A stretch of 64,000 nt of DNA from the NCBI RefSeq assembly GCF_000620865.1, contig NZ_KK211190.1, positions 2,832,914-2,896,913 on the forward strand. Direction: 5' to 3'. Made by a program: the position numbers and the translations under genes. This stretch comes from Exiguobacterium sibiricum 7-3. GTDB taxonomy: Bacteria; Bacillota; Bacilli; Exiguobacteriales; Exiguobacteriaceae. Shown piece after piece: positions 13,386 to 56,578 of this stretch (the stretch's first letter is position 1; every line of letters starts with the position of its first letter). The notes under the pieces are model-generated. The model was not told the DNA's origin, ran no database searches, and saw only the letters and a list, made by a program, of their open reading frames with translations.

Positions 13386-13393
13386 TTCTTTTT

Positions 13394-30420: not shown

Positions 30421-30429
30421 GGAGGAATT

Positions 30430-31812: not shown

Positions 31813-31832
31813 TGTAAAGGGGATCGAGTGGA

Positions 31833-32672
31833 ATGAAACAGACAGATGCGACAAAAATTGAGGAAACGATTCAAACCGACTTCAAAAAAGACATGTCTTA
31901 CGGGGATTATTTACAGCTCGATTCGCTTTTGACAAGCCAGCAACGGTTGTCGGATCATCATGACGAGATGCTGTTTATTGTCATTCATCAGACAAGTGAG
32001 TTATGGATGAAACTGATTTTGCATGAGATGACGGCTGCCATTCAGGCGATTGCCGACGATCAACTCGAACGGTCGTTTAAGATGCTGGCCCGCATTTCAA
32101 AAATTCAACAACAGTTGATCCAGTCGTGGAGTGTCCTCTCGACGCTGACACCGGCTGAATACCTCGAATTCCGGGATTCGCTCGGACATTCGTCCGGATT
32201 CCAGTCGTACCAAAACCGGCAGATTGAGTTTGCGCTAGGCTTTAAGAATGCCCAAATGTTACGCGTCTATGAGCATGAAACGGCGTTGTTCGCTCAATTG
32301 AACGATGACTTAAAGACACCGAGCATCTATGACGAAACCGTCCGGGCGATGCACCGGCGCGGCTTACCGATTGACGAGACGATTCTCAAGCGGGATGTCA
32401 CGGAAGACTGGGAAGCTGATCCGAGTGTCGAAGCTGCCTGGGCCATCGTCTATCAAGACGTCGAACAGTACTGGGATTTGTATGAACTCGGCGAAAAGTT
32501 GCTCGACATCGGCAGCCAGCAACAAATGTGGCGCTTTAACCACATGAGCACCGTCGAACGGATTATCGGTCAAAAGCCGGGAACGGGTGGTTCGTCCGGC
32601 GTCAGTTATCTGCGCCGTGTGCTCGATCATCGGTTCTTCCCGGAACTGTGGTCGGTCCGGACAAAACTTTGA
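31833..32672 (+). CDS. kynA: Tryptophan 2,3-dioxygenase
   Basis: Haem enzyme that opens the indole ring of L-tryptophan to N-formylkynurenine. 279 residues. Signatures: [20 protein letters not shown] (41-60), with substrate-binding His; [15 protein letters not shown]; and [22 protein letters not shown] with the proximal haem His and the loop over the active site. AAGGGGAT precedes the start. The order kynU-permease-kynA-kynB means the second, third and fourth products act before the first in the pathway. Confidence 0.95.
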
Positions 32673-32685
32673 GGGGGAATCTTGC

Positions 32686-33309
32686 ATGAACCGTTGGATA
32701 GATGTCTCACAACCTTTAACATCGTCGATTACGACGTGGCCGGGTGATACGAAATTTGACTACACCATCAATTGGAGTAAAGCCGATACCGGCTCCGTCA
32801 ACGTCGGACAGGTCACGATGAGTCTGCATACCGGCACTCATATCGATGCACCGTTCCATTTTGATGATGCCGGTCAAAAAGTCATCGATTTGGATCCGGA
32901 TCTTTATATCGGTCATGTCCGTGTCATTTACTTGCCCGGTCGGACGGAACTCGTGGCAAGTGATCTCGAGGCATTTGATTTAACCGATGTCCGCCGGTTG
33001 ATTATTAAAACAGACGGCTGGGTCGATAAATCGATTTTCCCGGAAACGATCCCGGTGCTGACACCAAGTCTCGCCGAACGTCTTGGAGCACTCGGCGTCG
33101 AATTGATTGGTCTTGATTTACCGTCCGTCGATGCGATTGACAGTAAAGAGATGAGTGCCCACCATGCGCTCGCCGCACATGGAGTTCATATACTCGAAGG
33201 GTTGGTTCTTGATGCGATCACACCGGGTGATTATCATCTCAATGCCGTCCCGCTTCCGCTCGTCGACGGTGACGGCAGTCCTGTCCGTGCGTTGTTGCGA
33301 CCGTATTAA
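32686..33309 (+). CDS. kynB: Kynurenine formamidase (arylformamidase)
   Basis: Metal-dependent cyclase-type hydrolase that converts N-formylkynurenine to kynurenine and formate. 207 residues, normal. The metal and catalytic motif HTGTHIDAPFHF holds His48, His52, Asp54 and His58. GAGGGGG lies 9 bases before the ATG at 32686; only 13 bases separate it from kynA. A strong terminator closes the operon. With kynA and kynU the route tryptophan to anthranilate is complete; no enzymes for onward degradation or nicotinate synthesis are adjacent. Confidence 0.95.
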   Translation: MNRWIDVSQPLTSSITTWPGDTKFDYTINWSKADTGSVNVGQVTMSLHTGTHIDAPFHFDDAGQKVIDLDPDLYIGHVRVIYLPGRTELVASDLEAFDLTDVRRLIIKTDGWVDKSIFPETIPVLTPSLAERLGALGVELIGLDLPSVDAIDSKEMSAHHALAAHGVHILEGLVLDAITPGDYHLNAVPLPLVDGDGSPVRALLRPY

Positions 33310-39708: not shown

Positions 39709-39778
39709 TGGTATACGTTTAACATGTTTACTCGTGATTTGTTTCACTTTTTAATAGAAAATGGGGGAATTTTATTTT

Positions 39779-41305
39779 ATGAAACGTCAAAATCAGCTTA
39801 TGCTTTGGATCAGTTTCTTTGTCGTCATCTTGTCACTGATTGTTCATGGTTTACACCGCTTCACAGATTTTGCTGACGGATATCAAATCATTCGTGGAAA
39901 CGTCAGTGCTGCCCCACCGACCGCTCTGATTTGGATTGCTTTGTTACCGGTCATTTGTTTGCTTGCTGCTGCTGTCCTGTACCGGATGCAATCACGAAGT
40001 GCGACCGTTCCGCTTCTGTTGACGCTGACATTGACATTTTCCAGCATGTCAATCGTCGCTGGCGGAAACGGACTCGTCGAATACCATTTCTCGATTTTTA
40101 TGGTCTTGGCATTGATTGCCTACTTCCGTCGGATTGATTTGATTCTTGTCAGTACCGTTCTGTTTGCCGTTCAACATTTTGCAGGCTTCTTTTTTGCACC
40201 GGCGCTGATTTGCGGTACGACCGGTTATCCGTTCAGCATTCTGATGATTCATGCCGTTTTCCTGATTTTAACCAGTGCTGCGCTTATCATTCAAATTGCC
40301 GTTCAAAATAAAGAGCGTCAAGCGGCATCACGCCGTGAAGCGGACGCAACGACGCTGATTACGAATGTCAGTCAGCAGATTGAATCTCTGGTCGGCAGTT
40401 TAAAAACGAATACGAAACACTTACAGCAAGCGGCTGTCCAGTCCGTCGAAGCAACGAACCAAATCGCGACGGCGATCGCACCAATCGTCCATTCTGCCGA
40501 CGGCCAACACCAATCGATGCAACAAGGAACAGATCAGTTGCACCAGGTTAACACGTCCATCGCCTCGATCCAATCGAAAATGGCACAGACCGTCACGACG
40601 ACGGAACATATGACGAAACGCGCGTTGACCGGAAACGAGGAGATGAATCTGATGGACCGCCGCGTCGAAGAGATGGTTGAATCGACGAATGGTCTGCATA
40701 CTTCTGTCACGGCAATGGCCAGCCGGTCGGATAAGATTCAAAAAATCCTCGCCAGCCTGGAAGCCATTGCCGGTCAGACCAATCTATTGGCATTAAATGC
40801 TGCCATCGAAGCGGCACGTGCCGGGGATGCCGGACGGGGATTTGCCGTCGTCGCAACGGAAGTCGGGCATCTCGCTGTTCAGTCCCGTAGCTATGCAAAC
40901 GAAGTAACGGAAGTCTTGCAGGCCCTGATTGCCGATACCGATCAAATCAAAACGACTGCCGCCGGTTATACGAAAACACTGGCTGAAAATCAAGAAATGA
41001 CGAGCCGTGTCCGTCAGACTTTTTCTGATATCACGCAACTCGTTCAAGAAGTTGAACAAAGTATCAACTCGATTCAAACAGCCCGTCACGGAGTTGGTGT
41101 TCAGATGCTCGACATTGAACAACGAATGGAAACGACCCGAACCGCTTCACTCGAAGTCCGGCATGGCATTGAATCGACTGCCGTCTCACTCGAACAACAA
41201 ACGACTGTCCAACACGAATTTGAAACGATGACCCAGTCACTCGGTCAGATGACAAGTTCCTTGGAACAATTGGTTGATGAATTGACCAATCACATCGAAA
41301 GGTAA
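39779..41305 (+). CDS. Methyl-accepting chemotaxis protein with multi-helix membrane sensor
   Basis: 508-residue chemoreceptor. The first 185 residues hold about six hydrophobic helices and no large extracellular ligand domain, so it likely senses a membrane or energy-related cue. The cytosolic signalling tip [21 protein letters not shown] with [11 protein letters not shown] is at about 330-370 and binds CheA/CheW. Long flanking helices form the coiled coil; there is no clear HAMP domain. The start at 39779 follows GGGGGAAT by about 10 bases; the ATG at 39761 is inside that site. Candidate sigma-D promoter upstream. Confidence 0.9.
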
Positions 41306-41445: not shown

Positions 41446-44400
41446 ATGCAGACCTCACTACAATCACTACTCGATGCTGCCCGCAGATTTGGTCGAACCT
41501 ATCGCAAAGATGCTCTCGTGTTAACCGGCGTTCTCATTTTGATTGTTCTGTACGGCGCCCCCCTGCTGAAACCGGGAATGGTCGTCTTCAGTGATATGTC
41601 ATTTGGTCTCTCGTCCAACCGGTATCTCGAGGAAATTTTTGGCGCCTGGAACAACCGCTGGAGTACGACGACCTTGTTGAACGTCGCCCGTCTGATTTAC
41701 ATCTTTCCTTTTTACCTGCTCAGTCTACTGTTTGGTGCGTCCGGTCCGATCTTGATCAAGTCGTTTATTTTTGGCTTGTTGATCGTCTCCGCTGTTTCGA
41801 TGTTTGCTTTGACGAAACGGTTGCATTCGGTCTACGTCTCACCTCACTTTTCTTTTTTATCACTCGTCGCCTTTGGTCTCGCCGCTTTGTTTTATGCCTT
41901 GAATCCATGGGTCATCACGCGGATTCAGCACATTTATCTCTTATGTGGCTACTCCGTCTTTCCACTCGCCTTGTTGTTGTTTTTTAATATATTTGATCCC
42001 AAATTCCGTGAACAGCTGAATCCGAACTTTTCATTATCCGAACGGCTATCTCGACGGACATGGATCGACATTACCGGACTGTCCGTCGTCTTTGCTTTCA
42101 TGGCGGCCGGCATCCATTACTTTTTCTTCTCCTTGATCTACATGGGGATCATGGTCGCCCTGATTTTTGCGAAGACCTTCTGGACACACCGCAAGGAAAA
42201 GATCATTAAACCGTTGATCGGTTTTTATGTCCGCTCCACGATTGCCTTTTCTCTTGTTTTCCTTTTGTTTAATTCGTACTGGTTTTTCATGTATGTCGGT
42301 TCCATCTTGACCGGATCACAAGCTTCGCAACATAACATCAATGTCTCCGATACGTTGATGTTATTCAGCCGTCATTCTTCGTGGACAAATGTGTTTTATA
42401 TAACGAGCTACTGGTGGCCGATGTTCGATCTGACGACGTTACCGCTTAGTTTCTGGTTAGGCGGCGGTGTCATTCTGTTGTTGATTTCGCTTGGTGCGTT
42501 CGTCTCCTATCGTCAGCCGATCCTGTTATTCTTCACCGGACTGAGCATCCCGTTGATTGTGTTTGCGACAGGGACTCACGAGCAGGTCGCCGACCTCTTT
42601 GTCTTATTCGTCACGAAGACACCGCTGATTGGTGCCATGTTTCGTGACCCCAACAAGTTAGTCGGATTGCTGATGGTGAGCTATAGTTTGTTGCTCGCTT
42701 CAAGCCTCGCGACCGTGTTTAACCGCCCTTCCAAAACGTTGCCGCTTCCGGTTTACCGCCTGCTTGCGATTGGAACGACAGTCATCGCCCTCGGGTTGTT
42801 TTTCTGGCCGTATCGCGCCGTTTACATGGAAGGTTTTTATCATCCGGTGAAGATGCCGAAAGAATATACCGCCGTTCAAGAACTGATTGACGGGAAATGG
42901 CTCCAGTTTCCGATTGCGGATGAAATGACACAACCGAGTACGGGGGTCGCGACACCGACCTGGAATAAAAATCCGCTTCCGGACGGCGAAACCAAAGCGA
43001 CCGGGGACGTCCAAGTCTACGGTTCGCAGGCAAACACGGTTTTTCATCACGAAGGTACCACCCAGACGGTCCGCTACATGATGACGTTCATGCAATATTT
43101 ACTCGATACCGGCCGCTCCGATCAAGCCGGGCAAATTGCACAGGCGTTTGGTCTGCAACAGTTTGCGTACCGGACGGAATATACGGGCATGCAGGAGCGG
43201 CAAGCCTTCAATAAAAAGATTCTCGCCACCCAACACGATCTGCTCGCGACAAAACAAGTGGGGCTGTTTACGTTATTCGATTTAATCGAGCCACTTGACA
43301 GTCGGACTGTTCCACAGTTGATTCTGACCCCATACGGTCTCGAACGGTCAGTCACTTTCTCGACTTTGGATGATTATAAACTTGGTCCCCAATCCATTTT
43401 GTATGCGACCCAAGCCCATCAAGACGGCTTATCGTGGTTAAAGAAAGACGACATCATCGAGATGACGGAAGAAAACGATGTGTTACTGAGTCAGGTACCG
43501 GAACAATACTTCTGGAAACCTTTCGACGCAATCGATTCAGCTAACTCTTTTTTAAACTGGGGAAAAACGTTTTTGGCAAACAGTGATTGGCGCTGGTATT
43601 TACGGACACAAGGAATCAGCAATCCATCGTTTGATCTCGACTTCGGTGATGGCGTCGGCTTATCCTTTGCTTCCGCACGAATCGATGCTCCCGTTTATAA
43701 ACTTGATCAATTAAAGACAAAACAAGTTGCTTCCTTCAATTCAATGCTTGAGGACGAGACATTTTTCAAAGCGGATAATCCGGACATCGTCGACTTATCC
43801 CCCAATCCTTTGTCAAAGGAAAATAACCTGCCTGTCCTGCGGGCGGAAGTCGCAGAGGGTGATCCGAAATACATTTGGCAGGTCGCGAAATCCGGCAAGC
43901 TGGACGCTTTACCGAACAATGCGTACCGGTTTGACATCACAGCGTCCGGTCGTGGTGTTGACCGGTTGCACGTCAAAGTCCGGTTTTACGATGCACAGGA
44001 TCGTGAACTGAATCAGACGTATGTCGTCGCTCCCCGCGACTCCGGTGATCTTGACGCAATCCATCTTCAAGGCGAGTACGTCACCCCGAAAGACGCCAAG
44101 ACGATGCGGATTGATTTGCTGAGTTTTCAGCGTCCGGAACGGAAGACGTATTGGTGGGTCCACGATATCAAGATTTTCAGTTTCGAGGACTATATGGTAC
44201 CGAACACGATTGAGATGACAAAAGAGACTACCCGAGGTCGTTATGCCGGTTACGCACGTGTCTTATTGAACCAAAACGGCGGCCAGCTTGACTTTGAATT
44301 CAACGACCAAACATTCTCTGTCAAGACGAAGCAAGCGGCAGGCGCAAAACTCGTTTGGGTGCCTCTCGGAAACTTCGTCGCAGACAACACAAGTTCGACA

Positions 44401-45903
44401 CTCCGCATCACGAATACGTCCGGCTTTAATGCCGTTCAAAACATCGTCTTGATTCCGAAAACAGAATGGACGAAAGTTCAGGAACGACTGGAAGAGAAAC
44501 TTCCAATCACCAAAACGTTGATGGTGCTCGAAGCAGAAACCGCCTTTGATTACGAGGGACACCTTCAATCCGAACGTAACTATCCCGGATTCAGTTTCGG
44601 AAAAGGTGTAGCTGCTCAAAAAGGAACGTTACGCCGGACGATTGATGTTGCTGAGGATGGAACCTATGACATCCAGCTGAAAGCGACACGACCGACGAAC
44701 ACGAATGGCCGGTTGACCGTCTTGCTGCGCGATGGGAAAAAAATCATCTACCGGCGTGTCTTGACAGCGCAGGATTTCAAGACGCCGGACATCCGAAAAC
44801 AAGCGATTGGTCAAGAAACCGTGACCTTCGATCCGTTGCACCGGGATTTTCCGTATCAACTCGAATCTTTGCCGGATGTCTACTCGGCACTTCATCAGAT
44901 TACGCTGAAAGACATTCCGTTGATGGGTGGTCGTTATGAGATTGAACTGGTTTATGCGAGTGCCGTTCCGTCACTCGTTACGATGGACGATCTGCATCAG
45001 TTTGACCCGAGTGAAATCGTCACCGACAAGCCACTTACGGAACCGGAAGCAGCCGCCAATTGTGCGACATGTGTCTCGATCACGGACGATATGTTTAGCG
45101 GGAGCGAAAAAGACGGTACGTATCGAATGGAATATGAAGCAACTTGTTCGTGTGACTGGTATATCTTCGCCTCCCAAAAAATCAAGGCACGCCCGAATCA
45201 TGAATACTTGTTGCAGTTTGATGCGGTCAGTAAAAATGTCCGGCAACGCCACTTGAAAGTCTTTTATTTGGATGAAAAAGACCGTGTCATCGGGACTGAT
45301 TTCATCAATGAAGTCGAGGAAGACAAAAAGAGCCGCTGGAATCATTACGAACAGATGATCATTCCTCCGAAAAAAACGGTGCGGATGCAACTGCATATCT
45401 GGACACGCGGTAATGAAAAAAAGGCGGGCAGCTTACAGCTTAAAAATTTGGAGTTTCTCCCTTACGATCAACTGATTCTCGTCGATCAGTTCGTGATGGC
45501 GGAACAGACCGGAAAACCACTGTTTTCTAAAACACCAGCCGAGAAATTGGGTGTCACTCCGTCATTGATGAATCGACACATCACAAGTGATGCGCCTCTT
45601 GGTCGTTTTACAGTCAACGATTCGCCGACATCGCTCTTTGAGTTACGGGACGGCATCGAACCGATGCGGGGAAACATCGCACTGAACGGCGTCAGCCAAC
45701 TGTACCGCTCGACTCAATCAACCGCCGATGTCACCGTCGTCTTACGTCCCGTCTATTACGTCGGACTGACCGTCCTGCTGCTTGCGTTCCCCTTGAGCGG
45801 GCTGCTGATCTGGTGGATGACGGGTCACCGCTTCATGACGGTTCGTCAGCGGCTCCGCACGAAACTGTTGTCAGCGATTCGTCGCCTTAAAAAATCGAAG
45901 ACA
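41446..45903 (+). CDS. Very large membrane protein, GT-C-like with big extracellular region
   Basis: 1486 residues. Residues 1-460 contain about eleven hydrophobic helices; an early SDMSFG acidic loop and the later NPWVITRIQHIYLLCGYS segment recall GT-C lipid-linked sugar transferases (AftD/YfhO-like), which is my inference. About 975 residues (460-1435) are soluble and probably outside the cell, with several beta-rich segments resembling carbohydrate-binding modules (for example around 815-920 and 1205-1330; the latter has a four-Cys cluster CATC...CSC). One closing helix lies at about 1436-1458, with a basic cytosolic tail. AGGAG is 7 bases before the ATG. First gene of the polysaccharide cluster; it likely acts on or attaches the polymer. 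The last codon before the stop ends at 45903; the stop is 45904-45906. Confidence 0.72.
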
Positions 45904-45910
45904 TGACAAA

Positions 45911-45955
45911 TACCCTGTACCGACCCGTTGCATATCGAGTCGGTACAGGGTATTT
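45911..45955. terminator. Terminator between the giant membrane protein and the GT2 gene
   Basis: Perfect 14-base stem TACCCTGTACCGAC/GTCGGTACAGGGTA with a 14-base loop, followed by TTTAA. It lies between convergent genes. Confidence 0.8.
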
Positions 45956-47108
45956 AACGATGCCGTCGATACAAGGCAACCATCGTCTTTAAAAAAGCAA
46001 TCGAGTCCTTGACCAGATTGACGTGTGACCCTTCCCGCTCGATACAGGTCACGGGCTGTTGGAACACACGCAACCGTTCTTTTTTCGCGGCATACATCAA
46101 TTCCAAATCGATCGCAAGACCGCTCTCGACGTTTAAATACGGCAGGATCCGCGGGACGACACGACGATTGATGATTTTTAGACCGGTTTGTGAATCCGTC
46201 ACCCCTTTTGGTAAAAAGGTCCGTGTCAGATTCCGTTTGGCAAAACTAAGCAGACGCCGGACAAGACCGCGGTCTTCGATCGTTAAGTCCTTCGTTCCGA
46301 TGACGATATCATAGTAATCATTTTGGGCAATCGTCAGCAGACGGGCGATGTCTTCTGTCTTAAACGAATTGTCGGCATCGACGAACACGTAATAATCACT
46401 CGAGATATTTTTCATCCCTTCGATGAAAAGTCCCGCTTTCCGAGTATTCCGTTCCACCTGATGGACTTCCAGATATCCGACTGTAAACAGTGTATCCGTC
46501 GCTTCCATGACGATGGACCGATAGTCATGTAACAGCGCCTTTGAACGGTCGGAAGAAGCATCATCAAAGAAGTTGATCGAGGCATGGATGTAATCTTCAC
46601 TGATCAGCTCTGCCAAGGCCTCTAAAAATTGTTTTACATGCATAAAACGTTTCTCTTCGTTAAATATTGGTAATATAAAGGCTATAGTGTCTTTTAAAAT
46701 GGGATATTCAGGATGGATGATATGTTGGATTTCAGCAAATAGTTCATTTGGATAACCTGCTCGATAGGAAAATGTGTGGAGAATGCCGTCCCCCTTAACC
46801 GCTTCATAGGGGAAATCCCCTTTCATCTGTACGACATCTTTGATCAACAGAATTTTAGCTCGCGAACGGATACTTCGGATTTGATTCAAAATCTTTAACT
46901 CGTCTTCACGCGTCTGATAATCGACGATATACAACTTGATATCGTGTTCACTTTCTGCCTCCTGCACTTCTGTAATGGCAATTTGTTCAAAAGAAGCAGG
47001 ACATTTACCAGGCTGCGTGTAAAAGAGTACAGGATAATAAGAAATCAGGCTCTCGTACGGAATATGCCGTCCGTGGTCCGTAAAGACTGCGATATGACCT
47101 TGATTCAT
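45954..47108 (-). CDS. Family-2 glycosyltransferase with N-terminal receiver-like domain
   Basis: 384-residue two-part protein. Residues 146-350 are a DPM1-type GT2 domain: LPIFNEEKRF, FFDDASSDRS, and VFVDADNS with the metal-binding DxD (244-246); TDSQTGLKI is the acceptor-side motif. It would transfer a sugar to a polyprenyl phosphate or glycan. Residues 1-132 look like a degenerate response-regulator fold (LYIVDYQ with Asp63, then KILLIKD) but lack the acidic pocket and the Lys, so phosphorylation is unlikely. The fusion is unusual for GT2 enzymes. It is divergent from the flippase gene; its 5' half is notably AT-rich compared with neighbours. Confidence 0.8.
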   Translation of the reverse strand: MNQGHIAVFTDHGRHIPYESLISYYPVLFYTQPGKCPASFEQIAITEVQEAESEHDIKLYIVDYQTREDELKILNQIRSIRSRAKILLIKDVVQMKGDFPYEAVKGDGILHTFSYRAGYPNELFAEIQHIIHPEYPILKDTIAFILPIFNEEKRFMHVKQFLEALAELISEDYIHASINFFDDASSDRSKALLHDYRSIVMEATDTLFTVGYLEVHQVERNTRKAGLFIEGMKNISSDYYVFVDADNSFKTEDIARLLTIAQNDYYDIVIGTKDLTIEDRGLVRRLLSFAKRNLTRTFLPKGVTDSQTGLKIINRRVVPRILPYLNVESGLAIDLELMYAAKKERLRVFQQPVTCIEREGSHVNLVKDSIAFLKTMVALYRRHR

Positions 47109-47159
47109 GCTGATTCATCCTTTCCGTATCATTCAAACTGATTGATGGGAGGTGTTCCG

Positions 47160-48347
47160 ATGACTGGTTTTCTGAACCGTCATGCGGTAATTTTGATTTT
47201 TCCGGTTCTCGATATTTTATTGAACATTGTCAACTATGCCTATCACTTGTTGTTAGCCCGTCAATTATCGAGTGTCGACTATGGATTTTTAAACGGTTAT
47301 CTCGCTTTACTTGGTCTGCTCCTTATCATCGGAAGTGCTTTGCAGTGGACGGTCACACGCGATCTCAGTCAGCATTTAACGAATCATTATCGTGTTTTAC
47401 GAAACCGGTTGCTGGCTGTCGTTGGAGCCATTTTACTTATCTTACTGTATGTCTTACCTATCCTTCTACCTTTTACCAGAATAAACCTTCTTCTTGTTGT
47501 GCTTACAGTCTTCTTCCATATATTATTATCTTTCAGGCGTGGTGTCATTCAAGCGCAAGAACGTTTTTACGCCCTGAACCTTTCTTATTATGTTGAATCA
47601 TTAACAAAAGTAATCGCCACCTGGCTCTTGCTTCAGTATACGAACGTGACACTTGCCTTAGCCTTTATCTTGATCGGGATGCTAATGGCTTATCTTGTCA
47701 GCCTGCTTCAGACACCGTTCCCAGAGAGTACCGGTCCAACCCGATGGCACGGTCTGACGCATATGATTCATACCCAGGTCGTCATGACCCTCTTCTTTAC
47801 ACTCGACAGCCTGCTCGTGACACGGTTTTTCCCGACCTTTGCCGGCGACTATTCCGTCGCCTTGCGGTTCGGTCAGTTATTGTTGTTTGTCGCCCTCTCC
47901 TTATCGCAGCTTCTTTTGCCGCGTCTCAGCAGCCTTAATCACCAACAGTCCTTTCACATCTGGGAACGTAAGTTGTACGTGTTTCTATTGAGTGGTCTTG
48001 CCTGTGCCATCATCTTTTACGTCACGGTTGTCCCGTACCTTATTCCCTTATTATTCGGAGCCGGTTATGACTTAGCCGGACAATATGTCAAATACATGGT
48101 GCTCGTCTACGCCGGGATCACGCTGATCCAGTACGAAGCACTTGTCCAATTTTCGCTACACCGGACAAGCTATCTGAAGTGGTTTTGGGGGATTCTCGTC
48201 TTGTTGGTCCTCTCTCTCTTGTTCGTCCGCCAAACGGTTGAAATTTGGTTGACCGGACAAGCGGTCGTCTTGTTAGGAAGTGCCTTTGTCCTGAGATTCA
48301 TTTTGCCGAAACAGCGATTGATTGCGAAAAAGGAGGAACGATTATGA
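47160..48347 (+). CDS. Polysaccharide flippase (Wzx/MOP-like)
   Basis: 395-residue membrane protein with 11-12 hydrophobic helices, of the oligosaccharide-flippase type. NYAYHLLLARQLSSVDYGFLNGYLALLGLL at the N-terminus is a classic Wzx opening. It would move lipid-linked repeat units across the membrane. The ATG at 47160 follows GGGAGG by 7 bases; the earlier TTG/ATG codons at 47142-47145 lie before that site. Its stop overlaps the next start as ATGA. Confidence 0.85.
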   Translation: MTGFLNRHAVILIFPVLDILLNIVNYAYHLLLARQLSSVDYGFLNGYLALLGLLLIIGSALQWTVTRDLSQHLTNHYRVLRNRLLAVVGAILLILLYVLPILLPFTRINLLLVVLTVFFHILLSFRRGVIQAQERFYALNLSYYVESLTKVIATWLLLQYTNVTLALAFILIGMLMAYLVSLLQTPFPESTGPTRWHGLTHMIHTQVVMTLFFTLDSLLVTRFFPTFAGDYSVALRFGQLLLFVALSLSQLLLPRLSSLNHQQSFHIWERKLYVFLLSGLACAIIFYVTVVPYLIPLLFGAGYDLAGQYVKYMVLVYAGITLIQYEALVQFSLHRTSYLKWFWGILVLLVLSLLFVRQTVEIWLTGQAVVLLGSAFVLRFILPKQRLIAKKEERL

Positions 48348-49483
48348 AACCCCATCTCTTATTTTTATCGTGGCGTGACATCAAACACCCGAAGGCCGGT
48401 GGTGCCGAGGTCTTTACACACGAAATGCTTCGCCGTGTCACGGATGACTATACAATCACGCACATTTCCCCCGCCTTTGAGGGGGGGCATGACGTCGAGT
48501 TTTTGGACGGCGTCACGTATGTCCGCCACGGTACACTCGCAACCGTCATTCCCTATGCGGCTTCTTACTATTACAAACACGCTTCATCGATCGATCTCGT
48601 CGTCGATCAGGTCAACACCCATCAGTTCTTCACGCCGTTTTACGTCCCGCGCGCCAAGCGTGCTTTGTTCATTCATCAGTTCACGCGTGAAATCTGGCAG
48701 ATCAATGTCAAGCGCCCTTACGCCTGGCTCGGCGAACAGACCGAGACGCCCCGGCTTCAGCTGTACCGCAATGGCCGCGCCTTGACGGTCAGTCAGTCGA
48801 CGGCGGACGACTTGCGCTCCATCGGCTTTTCCAAACAACAGATCACGATTCTTCCCGAAGGACTCGATTTTGTTCCTTGGAAAGAAGACGTCTGGCAGCC
48901 CAAAGAGCCGGTCCCGACCTTTTTATACGTCGGACGGATGTCTGCTTATAAAGGAATCGACGATGCCATTCAGGCTTTCGTCATCCTAAAACAAGAATTT
49001 CCGACAGCGAAGTTTTGGGTCATCGGCAAAAAAGATGAGCGCTATATCCAACAGCAGCTGGACCCGCTTGTCCCGGAAGAGATTCGGGGAGATATTACGT
49101 ACTTCGGCTTTGTCAGCGCAGAAGAAAAACTCGAACGGATGAGTCGGGCGACCGCCCTCCTCTTCCCTTCCAAACGCGAAGGCTGGGGATTGACGGTCAG
49201 CGAAGCGGCGGCTGTCGGCACACCGACGATTGTCTATGACGCCCCCGGTTTACGAGATGCCGTCCAGTACGGGATGGCGGGTTATATGACCGTCGCCCAG
49301 TCGCCCGGTGCGCTCGCTTCCGAAATGCGTTCCTGCATTCAAGACACCGAACAATACGACACGATTCGTTATGCCGCCTATCGTTTCGCTCAGACACTGC
49401 ACTGGGATAACACCGGTCAACACTTTCGAAACTGGCTTCAGAACGAACTTCCACTACCTGATGTGAAGGAGGAGTATGTATGA
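48344..49483 (+). CDS. Family-4 (GT-B) glycosyltransferase
   Basis: 379-residue cytosolic retaining glycosyltransferase. The acceptor domain begins SWRDIKHPKAGGAEVFTHEM; the donor domain has FLYVGRMSAYKGIDDAIQAF and the E-x7-E motif in FPSKREGWGLTVSEAAAVGTP. Resembles mannosyl- or glucosyl-transferases of capsule loci; with manC and manA in the cluster a GDP-mannose donor is a fair guess. AGGAGG precedes the ATG. It is coupled by ATGA overlaps to both neighbours. Confidence 0.88.
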   Translation: MKPHLLFLSWRDIKHPKAGGAEVFTHEMLRRVTDDYTITHISPAFEGGHDVEFLDGVTYVRHGTLATVIPYAASYYYKHASSIDLVVDQVNTHQFFTPFYVPRAKRALFIHQFTREIWQINVKRPYAWLGEQTETPRLQLYRNGRALTVSQSTADDLRSIGFSKQQITILPEGLDFVPWKEDVWQPKEPVPTFLYVGRMSAYKGIDDAIQAFVILKQEFPTAKFWVIGKKDERYIQQQLDPLVPEEIRGDITYFGFVSAEEKLERMSRATALLFPSKREGWGLTVSEAAAVGTPTIVYDAPGLRDAVQYGMAGYMTVAQSPGALASEMRSCIQDTEQYDTIRYAAYRFAQTLHWDNTGQHFRNWLQNELPLPDVKEEYV

Positions 49484-50346
49484 TTGGAATCGCGATGTCG
49501 ACGTATCAAAATGAAGCCATTATCGGGGAAACGATTCGTTCTCTCCAAGCCCAAGCTTCACCTTTTCGTTGTATCATTGCCGACGACGGCTCGACTGATC
49601 AGACGGTCCAAATGATTCAGCAGTTGACACAACACGATGAACGCTTTGAGGTCATTGCTCTGCCGCATGGTGAACGTGGGATTGCAAGAAAGACAGCCAT
49701 CGATCGTCTAAAAGCACTCGACGTCGAGTATCTGTACATCATCGATTCGGATATGGTGCTTTCGGATGATCTGCTGAAGAGTTGCCTGTTGTACCTCGAA
49801 GCCCACCCGGATATTGGAGCACTTGTCATCCCGGAACAGGCATACAGCGACCATTCGAATTTTTTTAGTCAAGTCAAAGTGTTCGAACGGAACTTGTTTA
49901 ATATTCCGACCGATCAGCTTGATGCCAATTCGATTGAAGCCGCTCGTTTTTGGCGGCTCGACGCCTATGTAACTTCAGGTGAAATTGATCCGACGCAAAT
50001 CAGTTTCGAGGAAACCCAACCAACCATCCGTTACCTGGAGCAAGGAGGACAAATCCGGCGGGCGACCTTCACCTTTGTCCGGCATAATGAAAAACAGGTC
50101 GAGCTTAGCGACCTGCTTCAAAAAAAACGCTATTATTTTGAAGTCATGCCGACAACGCTTCAAAACGAAGAAAGCGGACTGGCAAAGGCATTGCAACGAT
50201 GGTACTTTTTCCGGCCTGTTTTATATCACAAAACGAATCTCAAAAAATACGTTCGCCATCCGCTTCTTGCAGCTGGTGTCATCTACATGTATATCCGCCT
50301 CAGCTTCATCGGGGTCGAATCGCTTGTCTTCAAACGTGTTTCATGA
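49480..50346 (+). CDS. Family-2 glycosyltransferase
   Basis: 288-residue inverting GT-A enzyme: AMSTYQNEAIIGETIRSL at the N-terminus, IIADDGSTDQT, and IIDSDMVLSDD with the metal DxD. A hydrophobic segment near the C-terminus (HPLLAAGVIYMYIRLSFIGVE) may fix it to the membrane. Start overlaps the preceding stop as ATGA. Its 3' end overlaps the convergent receiver-like gene by 17 bases with no terminator between. Confidence 0.87.
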   Translation: MIGIAMSTYQNEAIIGETIRSLQAQASPFRCIIADDGSTDQTVQMIQQLTQHDERFEVIALPHGERGIARKTAIDRLKALDVEYLYIIDSDMVLSDDLLKSCLLYLEAHPDIGALVIPEQAYSDHSNFFSQVKVFERNLFNIPTDQLDANSIEAARFWRLDAYVTSGEIDPTQISFEETQPTIRYLEQGGQIRRATFTFVRHNEKQVELSDLLQKKRYYFEVMPTTLQNEESGLAKALQRWYFFRPVLYHKTNLKKYVRHPLLAAGVIYMYIRLSFIGVESLVFKRVS

Positions 50347-50941
50347 CCGTTCCATTCATGGCTTGATACAAGATATAGGTTCCGAATTGCGTCGGAAATT
50401 CAAAGCGGTGTAAACCGTTCATTTCATCATCCGGCGCTTCTTGATTCGGAATCTCCAGTGCACGGCGACCCACAATCGTCCCATCTTCAAAAAATAAGCA
50501 ATACGGCCGATTGGCATTGGTTAAAATCCCGTTAAACATGACACCAATATTTTTCTTCCGGTGTTTCGTCTCAACGACTTCTGCTCCGATTTTCTCCATG
50601 ATGCGGAGAATCGTTTCATCAATTTTTAATGGTTTTGTCATCAAACGACTGATGTTTCCGGAATTGACGGCGGCAAGTAACGTATGCAATTGCATATAAT
50701 CCGTCAGTACAATCTGTTTCGTTAACGGGTACAGTCGCGTGACCTTTTTCAGCAGTTCGACACCGTCGAGTTGTGGCAACCGCAATTCTGTCACGATGAC
50801 ATCAACATCCTGTACTTCGAGCAAGGACAAGGCCTCTTCTGCCGATCCCGCTTCTAGCACCTCCTGCTCTCGTTCGAGTAACTTCCGTTGCAAAATCTTT
50901 CTTGTCGGCTCATGTGCATCAACTAATAAGTATAGTGCCAT
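50330..50941 (-). CDS. Receiver-domain protein with Glu at the phosphorylation site
   Basis: 203 residues. Residues 1-118 are a response-regulator receiver: LLVDAHEPTRKILQRKL, VIVTELRLPQLDG, IVLTDY and LMTKPLKI. The conserved phosphate-accepting Asp is Glu52 (TELRLP), while Thr80 and Lys103 are kept, and only one acidic residue (Asp8) remains in the pocket. A Glu here can mimic the phosphorylated state. Residues 125-203 form a small domain (IGVMFNGILTNANRPYCLFF...) not recognised and not a known DNA-binding domain. GGAGG precedes the ATG at 50941. It sits inside the polysaccharide cluster, 32 bases divergent from manC, and may control the cluster by protein contact. Confidence 0.78.
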   Translation of the reverse strand: MALYLLVDAHEPTRKILQRKLLEREQEVLEAGSAEEALSLLEVQDVDVIVTELRLPQLDGVELLKKVTRLYPLTKQIVLTDYMQLHTLLAAVNSGNISRLMTKPLKIDETILRIMEKIGAEVVETKHRKKNIGVMFNGILTNANRPYCLFFEDGTIVGRRALEIPNQEAPDDEMNGLHRFEFPTQFGTYILYQAMNGTVMKHV

Positions 50942-50973
50942 CTTTAAAACCTCCAGTTCAGAAAGGGTGTTGG

Positions 50974-52308
50974 ATGATGTATATTCTCTTATTATCAGGT
51001 GGATCCGGAAAACGACTTTGGCCGCTATCAAATGATTTGAACTCCAAACAGTTCCTGCGCATTCTTGAAGATGCGGATGGACACAAACAATCAATGATGG
51101 AACGGGTGTTTCAACAGTTAGAAGCGAGCGGTTTGGCGGACCGGACCGTCATCACGACGACGGAAGCCCAACTCGATGCGATTGAACATCAACTCGGCAC
51201 CAAGGTGTCCGTCATCCATGAACCGTCTCGGCGGGATACGTTCCCGGCCATCATGCTCGCAACGAGTTATCTGGCAGAACGGATTGATCCAACGGAAACG
51301 ATCATCGTCATGCCGGTTGATCCTTACGTCGACGCTTCTTTTTTCCAACGGTTTTCCGCGCTCGACGAGGCCGTCCAGGCTCACCCTGACGCGCTTCATT
51401 TAATGGGAGTCGAACCGCTTCATCCAACTTCTAAATACGGCTATATCATTCCTGAATCGACAAGCACGATGTCTCCGGTTCAACAATTTCGTGAAAAACC
51501 CTCCCTGGAGACTGCAGTCGAGTTGATTGATCAAGGGGCGTTGTGGAATTGCGGTGTCTTCGCCTGCCGGCTCGACTTCTTGACGGAACGCCTGAACGAG
51601 CAACAGGTGCCTGTGACGTATCAGGCATTGCGAACGGCGTATGATTCGCTTGAGAAAACATCGTTTGATTATGCCGTCGTCGAGAAAACAACCCACCTGT
51701 TCGTTCATCGGTATGATGGATACTGGAAAGATCTCGGGACGTGGAATACCCTGACGGAAGAAATGCCAAGTTCCATTCATGGAAATGCGCGGTTGATCCA
51801 TTCCACCAATACGCATATCGTCAATGAATTACAAGTCCCTGTCCTCGGAATCGGCTTGACCGATTTAATCGTTTCGGTCAGTCCCGATGGTGTGCTCGTT
51901 TCGTCAAAAGAGGAAACACCTCACCTTAAAGAATATCTTGTCGATCAAGAGCTTCCCCCGCAATTTGAATGGAAACGCTGGGGATATGCGACGATTCTTC
52001 ATCAACAACAATTGGAAGACGGACGGTATGCCGTGACACGCCGGCTGCATATCCAAGCTGACCATCAGATCAGTCATCACTACCATGCTCAGACAGACTC
52101 GACGTGGAGCATTCTCCAGGGACAAGCCGAAGCGATCATCGACGGGAAACATCAATTGCTTGGTCCCACTTCCGTCGTCCACATTCCACGCGAGATACCG
52201 CATACATTAAAGACATTGAGTGACTTGATTATGATTGAAATCAAATACTCCATCGACTGGACGGAGGAAGACAACTACCCGTTTCCGATTTCACTCGGTT
52301 CGAATTAA
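50974..52308 (+). CDS. manC: Mannose-1-phosphate guanylyltransferase with C-terminal cupin
   Basis: Makes GDP-mannose from mannose 1-phosphate and GTP; 444 residues. The nucleotidyltransferase domain opens LLSGGSGKRLWPLSN and carries VEKTTHLFVHRYDGYWKDLGTW. The C-terminal 110 residues are a cupin of the type-II mannose-6-phosphate isomerase type (RRLHIQADHQISHHYH, VVHIPREIPHTL). Bifunctional ManC/AlgA enzymes are usually about 470 residues, so this is slightly short, and a separate manA follows. GAAAGGG precedes two adjacent ATG codons (50974, 50977). Confidence 0.9.
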   Translation: MMYILLLSGGSGKRLWPLSNDLNSKQFLRILEDADGHKQSMMERVFQQLEASGLADRTVITTTEAQLDAIEHQLGTKVSVIHEPSRRDTFPAIMLATSYLAERIDPTETIIVMPVDPYVDASFFQRFSALDEAVQAHPDALHLMGVEPLHPTSKYGYIIPESTSTMSPVQQFREKPSLETAVELIDQGALWNCGVFACRLDFLTERLNEQQVPVTYQALRTAYDSLEKTSFDYAVVEKTTHLFVHRYDGYWKDLGTWNTLTEEMPSSIHGNARLIHSTNTHIVNELQVPVLGIGLTDLIVSVSPDGVLVSSKEETPHLKEYLVDQELPPQFEWKRWGYATILHQQQLEDGRYAVTRRLHIQADHQISHHYHAQTDSTWSILQGQAEAIIDGKHQLLGPTSVVHIPREIPHTLKTLSDLIMIEIKYSIDWTEEDNYPFPISLGSN

Positions 52309-52312
52309 TGGC

Positions 52313-52344
52313 GGCACGTATCGCAAAGGCGATACGTGCCTTTA
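52313..52344. terminator. Terminator between manC and manA
   Basis: Perfect 12-base stem GGCACGTATCGC/GCGATACGTGCC with a 4-base loop; short T-run on the plus side. Convergent genes share it. Confidence 0.8.
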
Positions 52345-53301
52345 ACTTGGAAAGACTTCACTCGTCACGCACTCCAGCCGCCCGGAGATCCGGTATTCCC
52401 CTGCCGAACAGGGAATGAAGTACTGATCCCCTTTTTGTAACAGGCGTTGTTCGGAACCATCAGCTGCATGCACTTCACCTTGACCTGATACGACGGTCAG
52501 CAGTCGAAACGTCGGACTGTCGGATAAGCAGTACTCCGCCCCGTTGATATCGTGATGGACGACCGTGAAGAAGGGGACTTCCAGTAACGTCGTTTTCGTC
52601 CCGGAAGTCGTCATCTCCCGAATCGGTCGGATTGTCAACGGTTCATCCGGAATCGTCGTAACGGCGATTGCTTTTTCGAGATGCAGCTCACGGCGGTTTC
52701 CATCAGCGTCGAGACGGTCATAATCATACAGTCGATACGTCCGGTCACTCATTTGTTGAATTTCAAGCAACACGATTCCCGGACCAAGAGCATGAATCGT
52801 TCCACTCGGAATGTAAATGAAATCCCCTTTTTGGACAGATTGATGACGAAGGCAGACATCCCACTCTTTCCGCTCCGCACACGTCACGAGTTCTTCGCGA
52901 CAAGACAGATGGTGACCAACAATGACCTCCGCCCCTTCCTCCGCCTCAAGGATATACCAACATTCATTTTTCCCATACGGTTCGCCTTCCAACCGTTTTG
53001 CATCTTCATCATTCGGATGGACTTGGACGGACAAATACGAGGAGGAATCGAGTAGCTTAACGTGTAAAGGAAAAGCCTCCAGTGCGTATGGACCAAATAA
53101 ACTTGTCCGATGAGTCTGCCACAATTGATCTAGTGTCTGTCCTTGATAAGGACCGTCCGCTAAAGGAGTTTGTCCGCTCGGATGTGCCGAAACCGTCCAG
53201 CATTCTCCGATTGATCCTGCCGGTAAATCGAAATGAAACAACTCTTCAAGACGACGACCACCCCAAATCCGTTCTTTGAATACTGGCTCGATTTTATACA
53301 T
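52342..53301 (-). CDS. manA: Mannose-6-phosphate isomerase, class I
   Basis: Zinc enzyme interconverting fructose 6-phosphate and mannose 6-phosphate, supplying the manC pathway. 319 residues, Bacillus-type length. FKERIWGGRRLEELF opens the protein; zinc ligands lie in VQVHPNDEDA and ILEAEEGAEVIVGH, and YIPSGTIHALG is the catalytic loop. The start may be ATG 53301 or GTG 53307; AAGGAG is 6 bases before the GTG and 12 before the ATG. A good promoter lies upstream. Confidence 0.92.
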   Translation of the reverse strand: MYKIEPVFKERIWGGRRLEELFHFDLPAGSIGECWTVSAHPSGQTPLADGPYQGQTLDQLWQTHRTSLFGPYALEAFPLHVKLLDSSSYLSVQVHPNDEDAKRLEGEPYGKNECWYILEAEEGAEVIVGHHLSCREELVTCAERKEWDVCLRHQSVQKGDFIYIPSGTIHALGPGIVLLEIQQMSDRTYRLYDYDRLDADGNRRELHLEKAIAVTTIPDEPLTIRPIREMTTSGTKTTLLEVPFFTVVHHDINGAEYCLSDSPTFRLLTVVSGQGEVHAADGSEQRLLQKGDQYFIPCSAGEYRISGRLECVTSEVFPS

Positions 53302-55339: not shown

Positions 55340-55942
55340 ATGAAGAAATGGCTTTACATACCACTTGCGGCACTTGTCTTGACCGGCTGTAATCAAGAAC
55401 AGGCACAAGAATCCGTTCCAAAAAAAGCAGCATCGGCTGACTACACATCGAGTCTGACGATTTCTCCCGTCTCCATCACCGAAGGCGAAGAAAAATTTGC
55501 GGCGCTTGGCAATCAACAGATCGGCAGCGTCCAGTTAAAAGGAAAGCTGACGAAGACACACTGGCTCAAAGGGGTCGAATACCTGCCGAATAAAAAAGAG
55601 CGATCTCTCTTTACACTTGAGCTTGAACCCAAAAGCTATGACACACAAGTCCGCTTTGCCCAGTCTTTCTCCGACGATAAGATCCACCTTGGCATCGACG
55701 TTGATGACACGACAGTCCAAGGGGACCATACCTTTAAACAGCTTGATGATTACATGGTGCGTGGTGCTGATTTCCGCTCCGGTCCTTCTGCCGCTACCCC
55801 GTATAATCTGTTGATGGTTTATCACATGACAAAAAAGAACGGAATTCGCGGCTTTAATTTAAACGATGTCACCCGACCGGCTGACGTCCCGCTTAAAAAG
55901 GGTGAACGGATTTTCGGGATTGTCTTATCGAATCACAAGTAA
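55340..55942 (+). CDS. Lipoprotein of unknown function, paralogue A
   Basis: 200-residue predicted lipoprotein: MKKWLYIPLAALVLTGC gives a signal with the lipidated Cys at 17. The mature part holds EGEEKFAALGNQQIGSVQLKGKL and HWLKGVEYLPNKKERSLFTLEL, and ends LKKGERIFGIVL. The same blocks recur in the next gene, so the two are tandem paralogues. Fold looks mostly beta. No known family recognised. ATGAGGCG-type ribosome site upstream. Its own terminator separates it from its paralogue. Confidence 0.75.
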   Translation: MKKWLYIPLAALVLTGCNQEQAQESVPKKAASADYTSSLTISPVSITEGEEKFAALGNQQIGSVQLKGKLTKTHWLKGVEYLPNKKERSLFTLELEPKSYDTQVRFAQSFSDDKIHLGIDVDDTTVQGDHTFKQLDDYMVRGADFRSGPSAATPYNLLMVYHMTKKNGIRGFNLNDVTRPADVPLKKGERIFGIVLSNHK

Positions 55943-55951
55943 TGACATCCG

Positions 55952-55982
55952 CGTCTTGTCTTTCTCGACAAGACGTTTTTTG
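55952..55982 (+). terminator. Terminator between the paired lipoprotein genes
   Basis: CGTCTTGTC/GACAAGACG stem, 6-base loop, T6 tail. Confidence 0.88.
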
Positions 55983-56020
55983 TTTGTTACCTTAATCCTT
56001 TAAGAAAGGATGTTTTTTCC

Positions 56021-56578
56021 ATGAGAAATTTTTGGATGATCTGCCTGTTGGCTACTTTTTCACTCAGCGGTTGCCTCGCAACTCAAAAAGAGACAGTGAC
56101 GGTGACACCGCTCAAGTTAAAAGCCGGTGAACAAGCCTTTGCGCAAATCAACGATCAGGACATCGCTGCATTTCATTTAAAAGGCAAACTCAAGAAACCG
56201 TATCTCCTGAAAGGTGTCGAATACTTACCAAATCATAAAGAGCGGACACTCTTTTCAATGGAAATCCCCGCTAAAACATATGACTCGACGTTGCGGATCG
56301 TACAATCTTCTTCGGCCAAATATACTCGGTTTGGTGCTAATTTGAATGGTGTAAGCCTGCGTTCACACGAAGCTTTAAAAATAAAACCGGATGCCGTCAA
56401 CACACAAAATCCGTCAAGTGAGTTCACGCTGGAAGATTACAATGTCCTGTTCCTCCGTCAGTTGTCCGCAAGCGGAAACCTCTCGTCGAATCCATTTAAC
56501 GATATTCATGGTCCTGAGAACATCACGATGAAAAAAGGTGAACAGATTTTTGCCTTTGTTCTGACCAAACAGAACTGA
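56021..56578 (+). CDS. Lipoprotein of unknown function, paralogue B
   Basis: 185-residue predicted lipoprotein with signal MRNFWMICLLATFSLSGC (Cys18). Shares with paralogue A the blocks GEQAFAQINDQDIAAFHLKGKL, LLKGVEYLPNHKERTLFSME and MKKGEQIFAFVL in the same order and spacing, but the linker after the lipid Cys is shorter and the middle differs. AGAAAGGATG precedes the ATG. Function unknown. Confidence 0.75.
   Translation: MRNFWMICLLATFSLSGCLATQKETVTVTPLKLKAGEQAFAQINDQDIAAFHLKGKLKKPYLLKGVEYLPNHKERTLFSMEIPAKTYDSTLRIVQSSSAKYTRFGANLNGVSLRSHEALKIKPDAVNTQNPSSEFTLEDYNVLFLRQLSASGNLSSNPFNDIHGPENITMKKGEQIFAFVLTKQN

What the first reader, a model, noticed from the sequence alone, without database searches (positions are those of the whole stretch)
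41446..53301. Uncharacterised polysaccharide cluster with a giant membrane protein and two receiver-like proteins
Seen: a 1486-residue membrane protein, two GT2 and one GT4 enzymes, a flippase, manC and manA, plus two proteins with degenerate receiver domains, all within 12 kb. There is no wzy, no tyrosine kinase/chain-length pair and no priming transferase that I recognise. Inference: a mannose-containing surface polymer assembled by a non-standard route, with the giant protein acting as transferase or anchor and the receiver-like proteins as internal controls.
Basis: partly seen in the sequence, partly recalled or inferred. Interest (0 to 1): 0.8.

Follow-up and report, generated by a model that had tools for sequence, protein, structure and literature searches.

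The report
Signal-wired mannose glycan assembly block
An eight-gene block in the bacterium Exiguobacterium appears to build a surface sugar coat with a giant membrane enzyme outside the usual assembly routes, and its relatives in two bacterial phyla carry the same core together with signalling proteins, which suggests that cells may control this coat at the enzymes themselves.

Summary
In detail: all eight genes are there and form a unit, in the same order in 11 of 11 intact genomes of the genus. A five-gene core (giant, GT2, flippase, GT4, second GT2) occurs in 36 of 37 loci examined, from Exiguobacterium, Paenibacillus, Brevibacillus, clostridia, Fusobacteriota and one unnamed genus (g137). 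The giant's predicted fold is a GT-C glycosyltransferase with carbohydrate-binding-like domains, closest to mycobacterial AftD; the first GT2 is closest to dolichyl-phosphate-mannose synthase. Best reading: three-component extracytoplasmic glycosylation plus two cytoplasmic transferases and a GDP-mannose supply. The receivers belong to it. The GT2 carries a receiver-like N-terminal domain in 20 of 20 sequences aligned from outside g137. The stand-alone receiver keeps the phospho-acceptor Asp in 20 of 20 relatives outside Exiguobacterium, where a sensor gene usually lies just upstream of the giant. In Exiguobacterium no sensor is found and the Asp is Glu in 17 of 17. That suggests two-component control that became phosphorylation-independent here. 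Activities, glycan structure and control are inferred, not shown. New variant of a known kind.

The parts
41446..45906 (+). giant membrane protein, 1486 aa; predicted AftD-like GT-C glycosyltransferase: hydrophobic region about residues 20-457, then beta-sandwich (carbohydrate-binding-like) domains, hydrophobic C-terminal segment about 1427-1461; invariant Ser49-Asp50
45954..47108 (-). GT2R: receiver-like (beta-alpha)5 N-terminal domain (about residues 1-131) fused to a GT2 domain (about 137-384) closest in predicted fold to dolichyl-phosphate-mannose synthase
47154..48347 (+). flippase of the polysaccharide-exporter type (its counterpart is fused to the GT4 in Brevibacillus, locus L094)
48344..49483 (+). 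GT4 glycosyltransferase; overlaps the flippase gene by 4 bases
49480..50346 (+). second GT2 glycosyltransferase (GT2b); overlaps the GT4 gene by 4 bases
50330..50941 (-). stand-alone receiver protein, 203 aa: receiver domain with Glu at the phospho-acceptor site plus a small C-terminal part without Pfam match; overlaps GT2b by 17 bases, divergent from manC with a 35-base gap
50977..52308 (+). manC: mannose-1-phosphate guanylyltransferase-like with C-terminal cupin
52342..53301 (-). manA: mannose-6-phosphate isomerase class I

Best explanation
The block is a self-contained machine for a mannose-containing surface glycan that works like the three-component extracytoplasmic glycosylation systems. 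ManA and ManC supply GDP-mannose. GT2R loads mannose onto undecaprenyl phosphate. GT4 and GT2b build or extend an acceptor glycan on the inner face. The flippase moves the lipid-linked sugar or glycan outside. The giant AftD-like GT-C enzyme, holding the acceptor with its carbohydrate-binding-like domains, transfers mannose from the lipid donor and so stands in for Wzy. Ancestrally this machinery is under two-component control: a membrane sensor encoded just upstream of the giant, with kinases nearby, acts through a stand-alone receiver in which no DNA-binding domain was found, and the donor-making GT2 carries its own receiver-like domain, so control is probably exerted on the enzymes rather than on transcription. 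In Exiguobacterium the sensor was lost and the receiver's Asp became Glu, giving a phosphorylation-independent and perhaps constitutively active form. Shown: gene content, co-conservation, predicted folds, the Asp-to-Glu pattern, absence of the sensor. Inferred: all activities, the sugar, the order of steps, the direction of change, and the control.
For: Core five in 36 of 37 loci, the exception being cut by a contig end. Flippase fused to GT4 in Brevibacillus. GT2R: PDB sequence profile best hit dolichyl-phosphate-mannose synthase 5mlz, 2.1e-7; fold 5mm1 Z 24.4, 2.1 A over 218 residues, above ArnC and GtrB at about 22. Giant: best AftD 6w98, Z 24.1, 4.2 A over 537 residues; rows 2-30 are oligosaccharyltransferase, Pmt4, AftA, DPY19 and ArnT chains and further AftD entries; carbohydrate-binding modules match within residues 654-1007. 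Ser49-Asp50 invariant in 24 of 24 aligned giants. The MmpA paper says MmpA aligns with AftD's membrane part (data not shown there), and MmpA is the only NCBIfam match of the giants scanned. Receiver: Asp in 20 of 20 family members outside Exiguobacterium, Glu in 17 of 17 inside. Sensor gene just upstream of the giant in 18 of 22 named loci outside Exiguobacterium; sensor and receiver agree in 21 of 22; no sensor in 19 genomes of the genus, while the same search rang in 3 of 3 known carriers. Anatomy of three-component systems with a MATE-family flippase and GT-C plus carbohydrate-binding module.
Against: No enzyme activity or glycan is known to me for any member. The giant has no credible solved relative by sequence profile and no Pfam family in the three giants scanned; the GT-C assignment rests on a model of mean pLDDT 75.7 covering residues 1-1060 only, and Foldseek's own top rows were insecticidal toxins and a glycan-binding protein, with PglB seventh and no AftD among the 50 shown. 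The window's flippase is under its Pfam cut-off. The four g137 loci have the core without manC, manA, any receiver or the GT2 N-terminal domain, so neither mannose nor receiver control is essential to the core. L080, L092 and L093 lack the stand-alone receiver and the sensor yet keep the GT2 N-terminal domain, so that domain does not depend on them. manC was not found in 5 of the 22 other named loci within the stretch held, and manA in none of those 22. One sister-genus genome of one tested gave a weak sensor match (3e-4) in a different 791-codon frame.
Confidence: 0.6

Rival explanations
1. The giant is not a transferase but an anchor or transport protein for a glycolipid (MmpA-like), and GT4, GT2b and the flippase make the glycan by themselves.
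For: The only NCBIfam model that touches the giant is MmpA, 'trehalose lipid delivery', in 4 of 4 giants scanned, though far under its cut-off; the paper describes MmpA as a transport-related membrane protein.
Against: Best fold match is the transferase AftD over 537 residues, and the next rows are GT-C transferases; Ser49-Asp50 invariant in 24 of 24; a polyprenyl-phosphate sugar synthase beside it needs an outside user of its product.
Confidence: 0.2
2. The giant is a protein or S-layer glycosyltransferase (oligosaccharyltransferase-like) and the block glycosylates a surface protein rather than building a polymer.
For: STT3, PglB, AglB, Pmt4 and DPY19 are close behind AftD in fold; Paenibacillus and Brevibacillus are known for S-layers, some glycosylated (recalled).
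Against: The carbohydrate-binding-like domains suit a glycan acceptor; AftD ranks first with an aligned range reaching residue 1054; I saw no conserved candidate substrate protein in the gene maps, which is no proof.
Confidence: 0.25
3. The receiver proteins are neighbours that do not act on the enzymes: they serve another pathway, or transcription through a partner.
For: Receiver and sensor are missing from some loci with a complete core (L080, L092, L093 and the four g137 loci). Several Paenibacillus loci also hold an OmpR-type regulator that could act on transcription.
Against: A receiver of the family lies beside the core in 30 of 33 named loci; no DNA-binding domain matched in the three such proteins scanned; a receiver-like domain is fused to the synthase itself.
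Confidence: 0.25
4. The donor sugar is not mannose (for example glucose or an amino sugar); manC and manA serve something else or supply GT4 or GT2b only.
For: No manC or manA in the four g137 loci; polyprenyl-phosphate synthases for several sugars share the fold.
Against: Nearest by fold and by sequence profile is the mannose enzyme; in the genus manC is in 12 of 12 genomes with the block or its remnant, and in 1 of 7 without (a 47% relative elsewhere, G016; G018 has such a second copy too).
Confidence: 0.25

Closest known systems
Three-component extracytoplasmic glycosylation (Gtr systems; C. youngae O1 pentofuranose system with MATE-family flippase and GT136; Gram-positive multi-component transmembrane glycosylation)
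   Same: Polyprenyl-phosphate sugar synthase, flippase and a GT-C enzyme, with a carbohydrate-binding module on the GT-C in some; anatomy as described in PMC11127046 (abstract and passages) and PMC8035078 (passages).
   Different: A different and large GT-C family; two further cytoplasmic transferases in the core; receiver and sensor genes in most of the loci and a receiver-like domain on the synthase. The words 'receiver' and 'response regulator' do not occur in the main text of PMC11127046.
Mycobacterial AftD (and MmpA)
   Same: GT-C membrane part plus beta-sandwich carbohydrate-binding domains; best fold match, Z 24.1 over 537 residues.
   Different: 15% identity over the fold alignment; no sequence-profile match to solved chains; no AftD-type Pfam hit; by hydropathy one C-terminal hydrophobic segment here against five C-terminal helices of sixteen in AftD (as told in PMC8698533); expected donor Und-P-mannose, not decaprenyl-phosphoarabinose (recalled).
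Dolichyl-phosphate-mannose synthase / ArnC / GtrB (GT2)
   Same: Catalytic domain fold and profile.
   Different: Carries a receiver-like N-terminal domain, and no C-terminal membrane helices like those of ArnC and GtrB (recalled for those).
Wzx/Wzy-dependent exopolysaccharide loci
   Same: Flippase, GT2 and GT4 enzymes, nucleotide-sugar supply.
   Different: No priming transferase, Wzy or chain-length pair matched in the block; priming transferase and Wzy genes lie elsewhere in the same genome (chain-length genes were not searched).

Membership tests
Three-component extracytoplasmic glycosylation system | GT2 polyprenyl-phosphate sugar synthase | tested here: met
   Predicted fold and sequence profile closest to dolichyl-phosphate-mannose synthase; activity not tested.
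Three-component extracytoplasmic glycosylation system | Flippase encoded with it | tested here: inconclusive
   Polysacc_synt 0.0021, under cut-off, in the window; Paenibacillus counterpart over the cut-off of Polysacc_synt_3; found in 36 of 37 loci.
Three-component extracytoplasmic glycosylation system | GT-C glycosyltransferase | tested here: met
   Predicted fold: AftD, STT3, PglB, ArnT at Z 24 to 14; model pLDDT 75.7. No experimental structure.
Three-component extracytoplasmic glycosylation system | Sugar transferred outside from a lipid-phosphate donor | not testable with these tools
   needs biochemistry
AftD arabinofuranosyltransferase family | Sequence membership (family model or solved-chain profile match) | tested here: not met
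   No AftD-type Pfam model at E up to 1 in three giants; no solved AftD chain matched by the 24-sequence profile at E up to 1.
AftD arabinofuranosyltransferase family | GT-C membrane domain followed by carbohydrate-binding modules | tested here: met
   (residues 1-1060 only; 1061-1486 not modelled)
MmpA family (NF053599) | Score over the curated cut-off of 210 bits | tested here: not met
   23.4 bits, residues 339-492; 19.3, 18.7 and 22.9 bits in three other giants.
Phosphorylatable response regulator | Phospho-acceptor Asp and acidic pocket | tested here: not met
   Window receiver: Glu at the site, second pocket acid lost. Asp present in 20 of 20 family members outside Exiguobacterium.
Phosphorylatable response regulator | Receiver domain with conserved Thr/Ser and Lys | tested here: met
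   Response_reg 3.1e-15; Thr80 and Lys103 invariant; 122 solved sequences matched at 1e-5, the 60 shown being nearly all receivers. The fold was not modelled for this protein.
Receiver domain (N-terminal part of GT2R) | (beta-alpha)5 fold with Asp at the end of strand 3 | tested here: inconclusive
   Predicted order of strands and helices fits; Asp63 invariant in 20 of 20 aligned; hhalign probability 36.0 to 69.6 depending on the receiver set; Pfam silent in two proteins; the domain was not folded or searched alone.
Wzx/Wzy pathway | Wzy polymerase and priming transferase in the locus | tested here: not met
   None among the matches of the eight proteins; copies elsewhere in the genome.

The most novel reading that the evidence does not exclude
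A conserved two-component pathway acts directly on a lipid-linked sugar machine: an outside sensor beside the giant GT-C, a receiver without DNA-binding domain, and a receiver-like domain on the polyprenyl-phosphate-mannose synthase together gate donor supply according to the state of the surface glycan. Exiguobacterium is a natural locked-on version, with Asp replaced by Glu and the sensor lost.
Probability: 0.33. Interest if true: 0.82.

Novelty: new variant of a known kind. Interest (0 to 1): 0.64.

Why it matters
Bacteria usually control surface polysaccharides through transcription, tyrosine phosphorylation or c-di-GMP (general knowledge). A receiver built into the enzyme that loads the lipid carrier, conserved in two phyla mostly with a sensor beside the giant transferase, would be a direct route from an outside signal to glycan output. 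It also adds an AftD-like GT-C family, without a Pfam model, outside the mycobacteria and in bacteria that can be worked on in an ordinary laboratory. The Asp-to-Glu change with loss of the sensor gives a natural experiment on how a phosphorylation switch becomes permanent.

Tried and rejected
Rejected: standard Wzx/Wzy locus (no Wzy or priming transferase matched here; they lie elsewhere). Rejected: chance neighbours (order kept in 17 genomes of two genera; core in 36 of 37 loci). Rejected: the upstream methyl-accepting protein 39761-41305 as part of the block; it is present in three genomes that lack the block (L026-L028) and not found beside the block in L020-L024. Rejected: degenerate receivers as a feature of the whole system.

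Led nowhere or weak: PDB sequence profile of the giant (nothing credible). Foldseek on the giant put toxin and other beta-sandwich chains on top; the VIA second look ranked AftD first. Foldseek and VIA on GT2R say nothing of the N-terminal domain, since the GT2 domain fills the rows shown. The window's GT4 matches only tetrahydrobiopterin glucosyltransferase chains at 1e-8, which does not tell its acceptor. The sensor search in the genus was empty, so a control was run: 3 of 3 carriers rang; 0 of 4 genomes whose locus has no sensor; of two Exiguobacterium genomes one gave nothing, the other a weak 3e-4 match to a different 791-codon frame. In the hhalign test the score against all 16 receivers is 29.4 (probability 54.2), against the canonical ones 32.0 (69.6), and with the untrimmed alignment the probability is only 36.0; the 30 shuffles were made from the 16-receiver profile. 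Paper searches showed no paper on this block in their listings, several of which were cut at 12 to 15 rows; PMC13233415 and PMC10837837 (passages only, for words such as glycosyltransferase, polysaccharide, mannose) do not describe it there. Most subscription papers are not held, so this shows no more than that.

Limits: the structure cap (2 jobs) left the giant's residues 1061-1486, the stand-alone receiver and the GT2R N-terminal domain alone unmodelled. The named scan used two short peptide patterns, so the true spread may be wider. The 6 of 398 in the phylum sample is no measure of frequency: it is one draw, and the named scan found carriers in genera that gave none in it. The unnamed genus g137 was not identified, and four of its five loci were fetched as wide stretches. 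Only part of the sequences at hand went into some alignments: 24 giants in A7, 22 GT2 proteins in A9, 20 GT2R N-terminal domains in A10, 16 receivers in A11. Receivers under 100 bits (OmpR-type and others) were left out of the Asp count; those of them shown carry Asp as well. Another cut-off for the receiver family would change the counts.


Full report
What is there. The window lies in a 3.08 Mb genome. The nearest named records found are Exiguobacterium antarcticum DSM 14480 and E. undae DSM 14481, at 98% and 96% identity in the giant (the window's own record may be left out of that list). Between 41446 and 53301 are eight genes: giant (+), GT2R (-), flippase (+), GT4 (+), GT2b (+), receiver protein (-), manC (+), manA (-), packed with gaps of 33 to 47 bases or overlaps of 4 to 17. 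Family scans support each label, with two soft spots: the flippase is under its Pfam cut-off, and the giant has no Pfam family.

Is it a unit? In the genus (19 genomes) the giant is found in 12, 11 of them full length, and GT2R in the same 11. All eight genes keep order and strand in 11 of 11 intact cases, beside the same flanking genes as far as the stretches reach (the window and ten fetched loci). In the twelfth genome, G002, most of the giant, all of GT2R and the start of the flippase are missing, and its receiver gene holds an in-frame stop. The seven genomes without the block were read at the same site: six have only a divergent GT4 there, one has nothing. A tree places the six solo GT4 genes inside the Exiguobacterium cluster GT4 genes (94/90, under the tool's own mark, with long branches flagged), with strongly altered motifs in three, as if the block was lost and the GT4 left behind. 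In the sister genus, 6 of 19 genomes have the giant, and in 6 of 6 the other genes follow in the same order at a place with different immediate neighbours; manA is not found there in two.

How far does it reach? A phylum sample of 398 genomes gave the window's own and five of one unnamed genus, g137. A scan of named genomes with an alignment of 14 giants found 33 loci: 11 Exiguobacterium, 16 Paenibacillus, Brevibacillus dissolubilis, Peptoclostridium litorale, two further clostridial MAGs, and two Fusobacteriota (Propionigenium maris and a Fusobacteriaceae MAG). Profile searches in these 33 and in four g137 loci find the core five (giant, GT2, flippase, GT4, GT2b) in 36 of 37; the exception, L078, is cut by its contig end. 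manC is found in 28 of 33 and in none of the four g137 loci; manA only in Exiguobacterium (10 of its 11 named loci). In Brevibacillus the flippase and the GT4 are one 821-residue protein. In both Fusobacteriota loci, the only ones here with an outer membrane (recalled), a 440-residue protein that by eye looks like an outer-membrane barrel lies in the block; the two are 66% identical and no relative was found in the other 35 loci (no Pfam family). That fits an exported product.

What are the two key proteins? GT2R: its catalytic half matches dolichyl-phosphate-mannose synthase best in sequence profile (5mlz, 2.1e-7) and in predicted fold (model pLDDT 82.4; 5mm1 Z 24.4, 2.1 A, 218 residues, 22% identity; ArnC and GtrB near 22). 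Its first 131 residues are predicted as alternating strands and helices in receiver order, are absent from four of four g137 proteins, and hold Arg14, Asp63, Gly106 and Gly108 in 20 of 20 aligned sequences. hhalign pairs Asp63 with the receiver phosphosite Asp (probability 36.0 with the untrimmed receiver alignment). With the trimmed one the probability is 54.2 (score 29.4), and against canonical receivers 69.6 (score 32.0), while 30 column-shuffled controls reach at most 16.5, GT4 21.0, GT2b 20.1 and the GT2 catalytic half 17.4. That is good but not final support for a receiver-like domain. Giant: hydrophobic segments from about 20 to 457 and near the C-terminus. The model of residues 1-1060 (pLDDT 75.7) matches AftD first (6w98, Z 24.1, 4.2 A over 537 residues, 15% identity), then oligosaccharyltransferase chains, Pmt4, AftA, DPY19 and ArnT; stretches within 654-1007 match carbohydrate-binding modules, CBM22 and CBM6 among them. 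Plain Foldseek did not put AftD in its 50 rows. Ser49-Asp50, in what should be the first outer loop, where GT-C enzymes keep a catalytic Asp (recalled), is invariant in 24 of 24. The same superfamily is hinted at by the weak NCBIfam MmpA match in 4 of 4 giants scanned, because the MmpA paper says that MmpA aligns with the membrane part of AftD (PMC8698533, passages).

The signalling parts. A stand-alone receiver protein of the window's family (100 bits or more) lies with the core in 30 of 33 named loci. Outside Exiguobacterium it is canonical: Asp at the phosphosite in 20 of 20 proteins from 19 loci. In Exiguobacterium the site is Glu in 17 of 17 genomes (11 of the window's genus, 6 of the sister genus), and the second pocket acid is lost; the sister genus has lost the first as well. 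Outside Exiguobacterium a membrane sensor gene ends just upstream of the giant in 18 of 22 named loci (L090 is a weak, short match). In the two Paenibacillus sensors scanned it has a HATPase_c domain; the shorter form was scanned in one locus (L075) and has none. Hybrid histidine kinases lie in four Fusobacteriota and clostridial loci examined (L075, L077, L085, L090). Sensor and receiver are both present in 18 of 22, both absent in 3 (L080, L092, L093), and in 1 (L094) there is a receiver without sensor. No sensor is found in the Exiguobacterium loci held nor in any of 19 genomes of the genus (control). The simplest account is a sensor-kinase-receiver pathway tied to the glycan machine, lost at the input in Exiguobacterium and fixed in a Glu form, which in some receivers imitates phosphorylation (recalled; it does not always).

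Mechanism and its limits. The anatomy fits three-component extracytoplasmic glycosylation: PMC11127046 (abstract and passages) describes a polyprenyl-phosphate synthase, a MATE-family flippase and a GT-C enzyme with a carbohydrate-binding module; PMC8035078 (passages) describes Gram-positive versions, mentions Wzx-type flippases and the outer carbohydrate-binding domains of AftD. Here GT4 and GT2b belong to the core, so the block may make the acceptor as well. I infer mannose from the synthase match and from manC and manA; g137 without manC argues for caution. I cannot say whether the flippase carries the lipid-phosphate sugar or a longer glycan; its fusion to GT4 in one genome favours a product of GT4. 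I cannot show that the receivers act on the enzymes; the absence of a DNA-binding match in the three receivers scanned and the fusion to GT2R favour it, and the loci that keep the GT2R domain without receiver and sensor (L080, L092, L093) show that the two can be separated.

Verdict. It is not a categorically new pathway: it looks like a known kind of glycosylation system with a new giant GT-C family. What would surprise a specialist is the signalling hardware conserved with it in two phyla and the natural Asp-to-Glu form in Exiguobacterium.

Noticed in passing
L026-L031, site between the zinc-metalloprotease-like and peroxiredoxin-like genes: Six genomes without the block keep one fast-evolving GT4 gene at the same place, with strongly altered glycine-loop and E-x7-E motifs in three (L026-L028) and a milder change in three; possible leftover or new function.
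   Followed up: partly
L025 about 12300-14000: Natural partial deletion in genome G002: most of the giant, all of GT2R and the start of the flippase are gone, the other genes remain; the receiver gene there has an in-frame stop.
   Followed up: partly
L075 7392-8714 and L085 7421-8740: In both Fusobacteriota loci a protein that by eye looks like an outer-membrane barrel, without Pfam family, lies in the block, 66% identical between the two.
   Followed up: partly
L088 14445-21527: Peptostreptococcaceae MAG with two GT2R genes, each followed by its own canonical receiver gene, in one locus.
   Followed up: no
L073 7693-8226: 178-residue protein between receiver and sensor in Paenibacillus (ORFs of similar size and place in L074, L076, L082, L087, L089), no Pfam match over a cut-off; looks receiver-like by eye.
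   Followed up: no
window 29143-33309: Kynurenine-pathway-like genes (kynureninase, amino-acid permease, tryptophan dioxygenase, formamidase, by eye); in the sister genus such genes lie near or right beside the block.
   Followed up: no
window 19938-24985: Two CDP-glycerol glycerophosphotransferase-like proteins with a cytidylyltransferase-like and an alcohol-dehydrogenase-like gene, by eye a teichoic acid locus.
   Followed up: no
window 55340-56578: Tandem pair of related small lipoprotein-like genes; two copies in L026 but one in L027 and L028.
   Followed up: no
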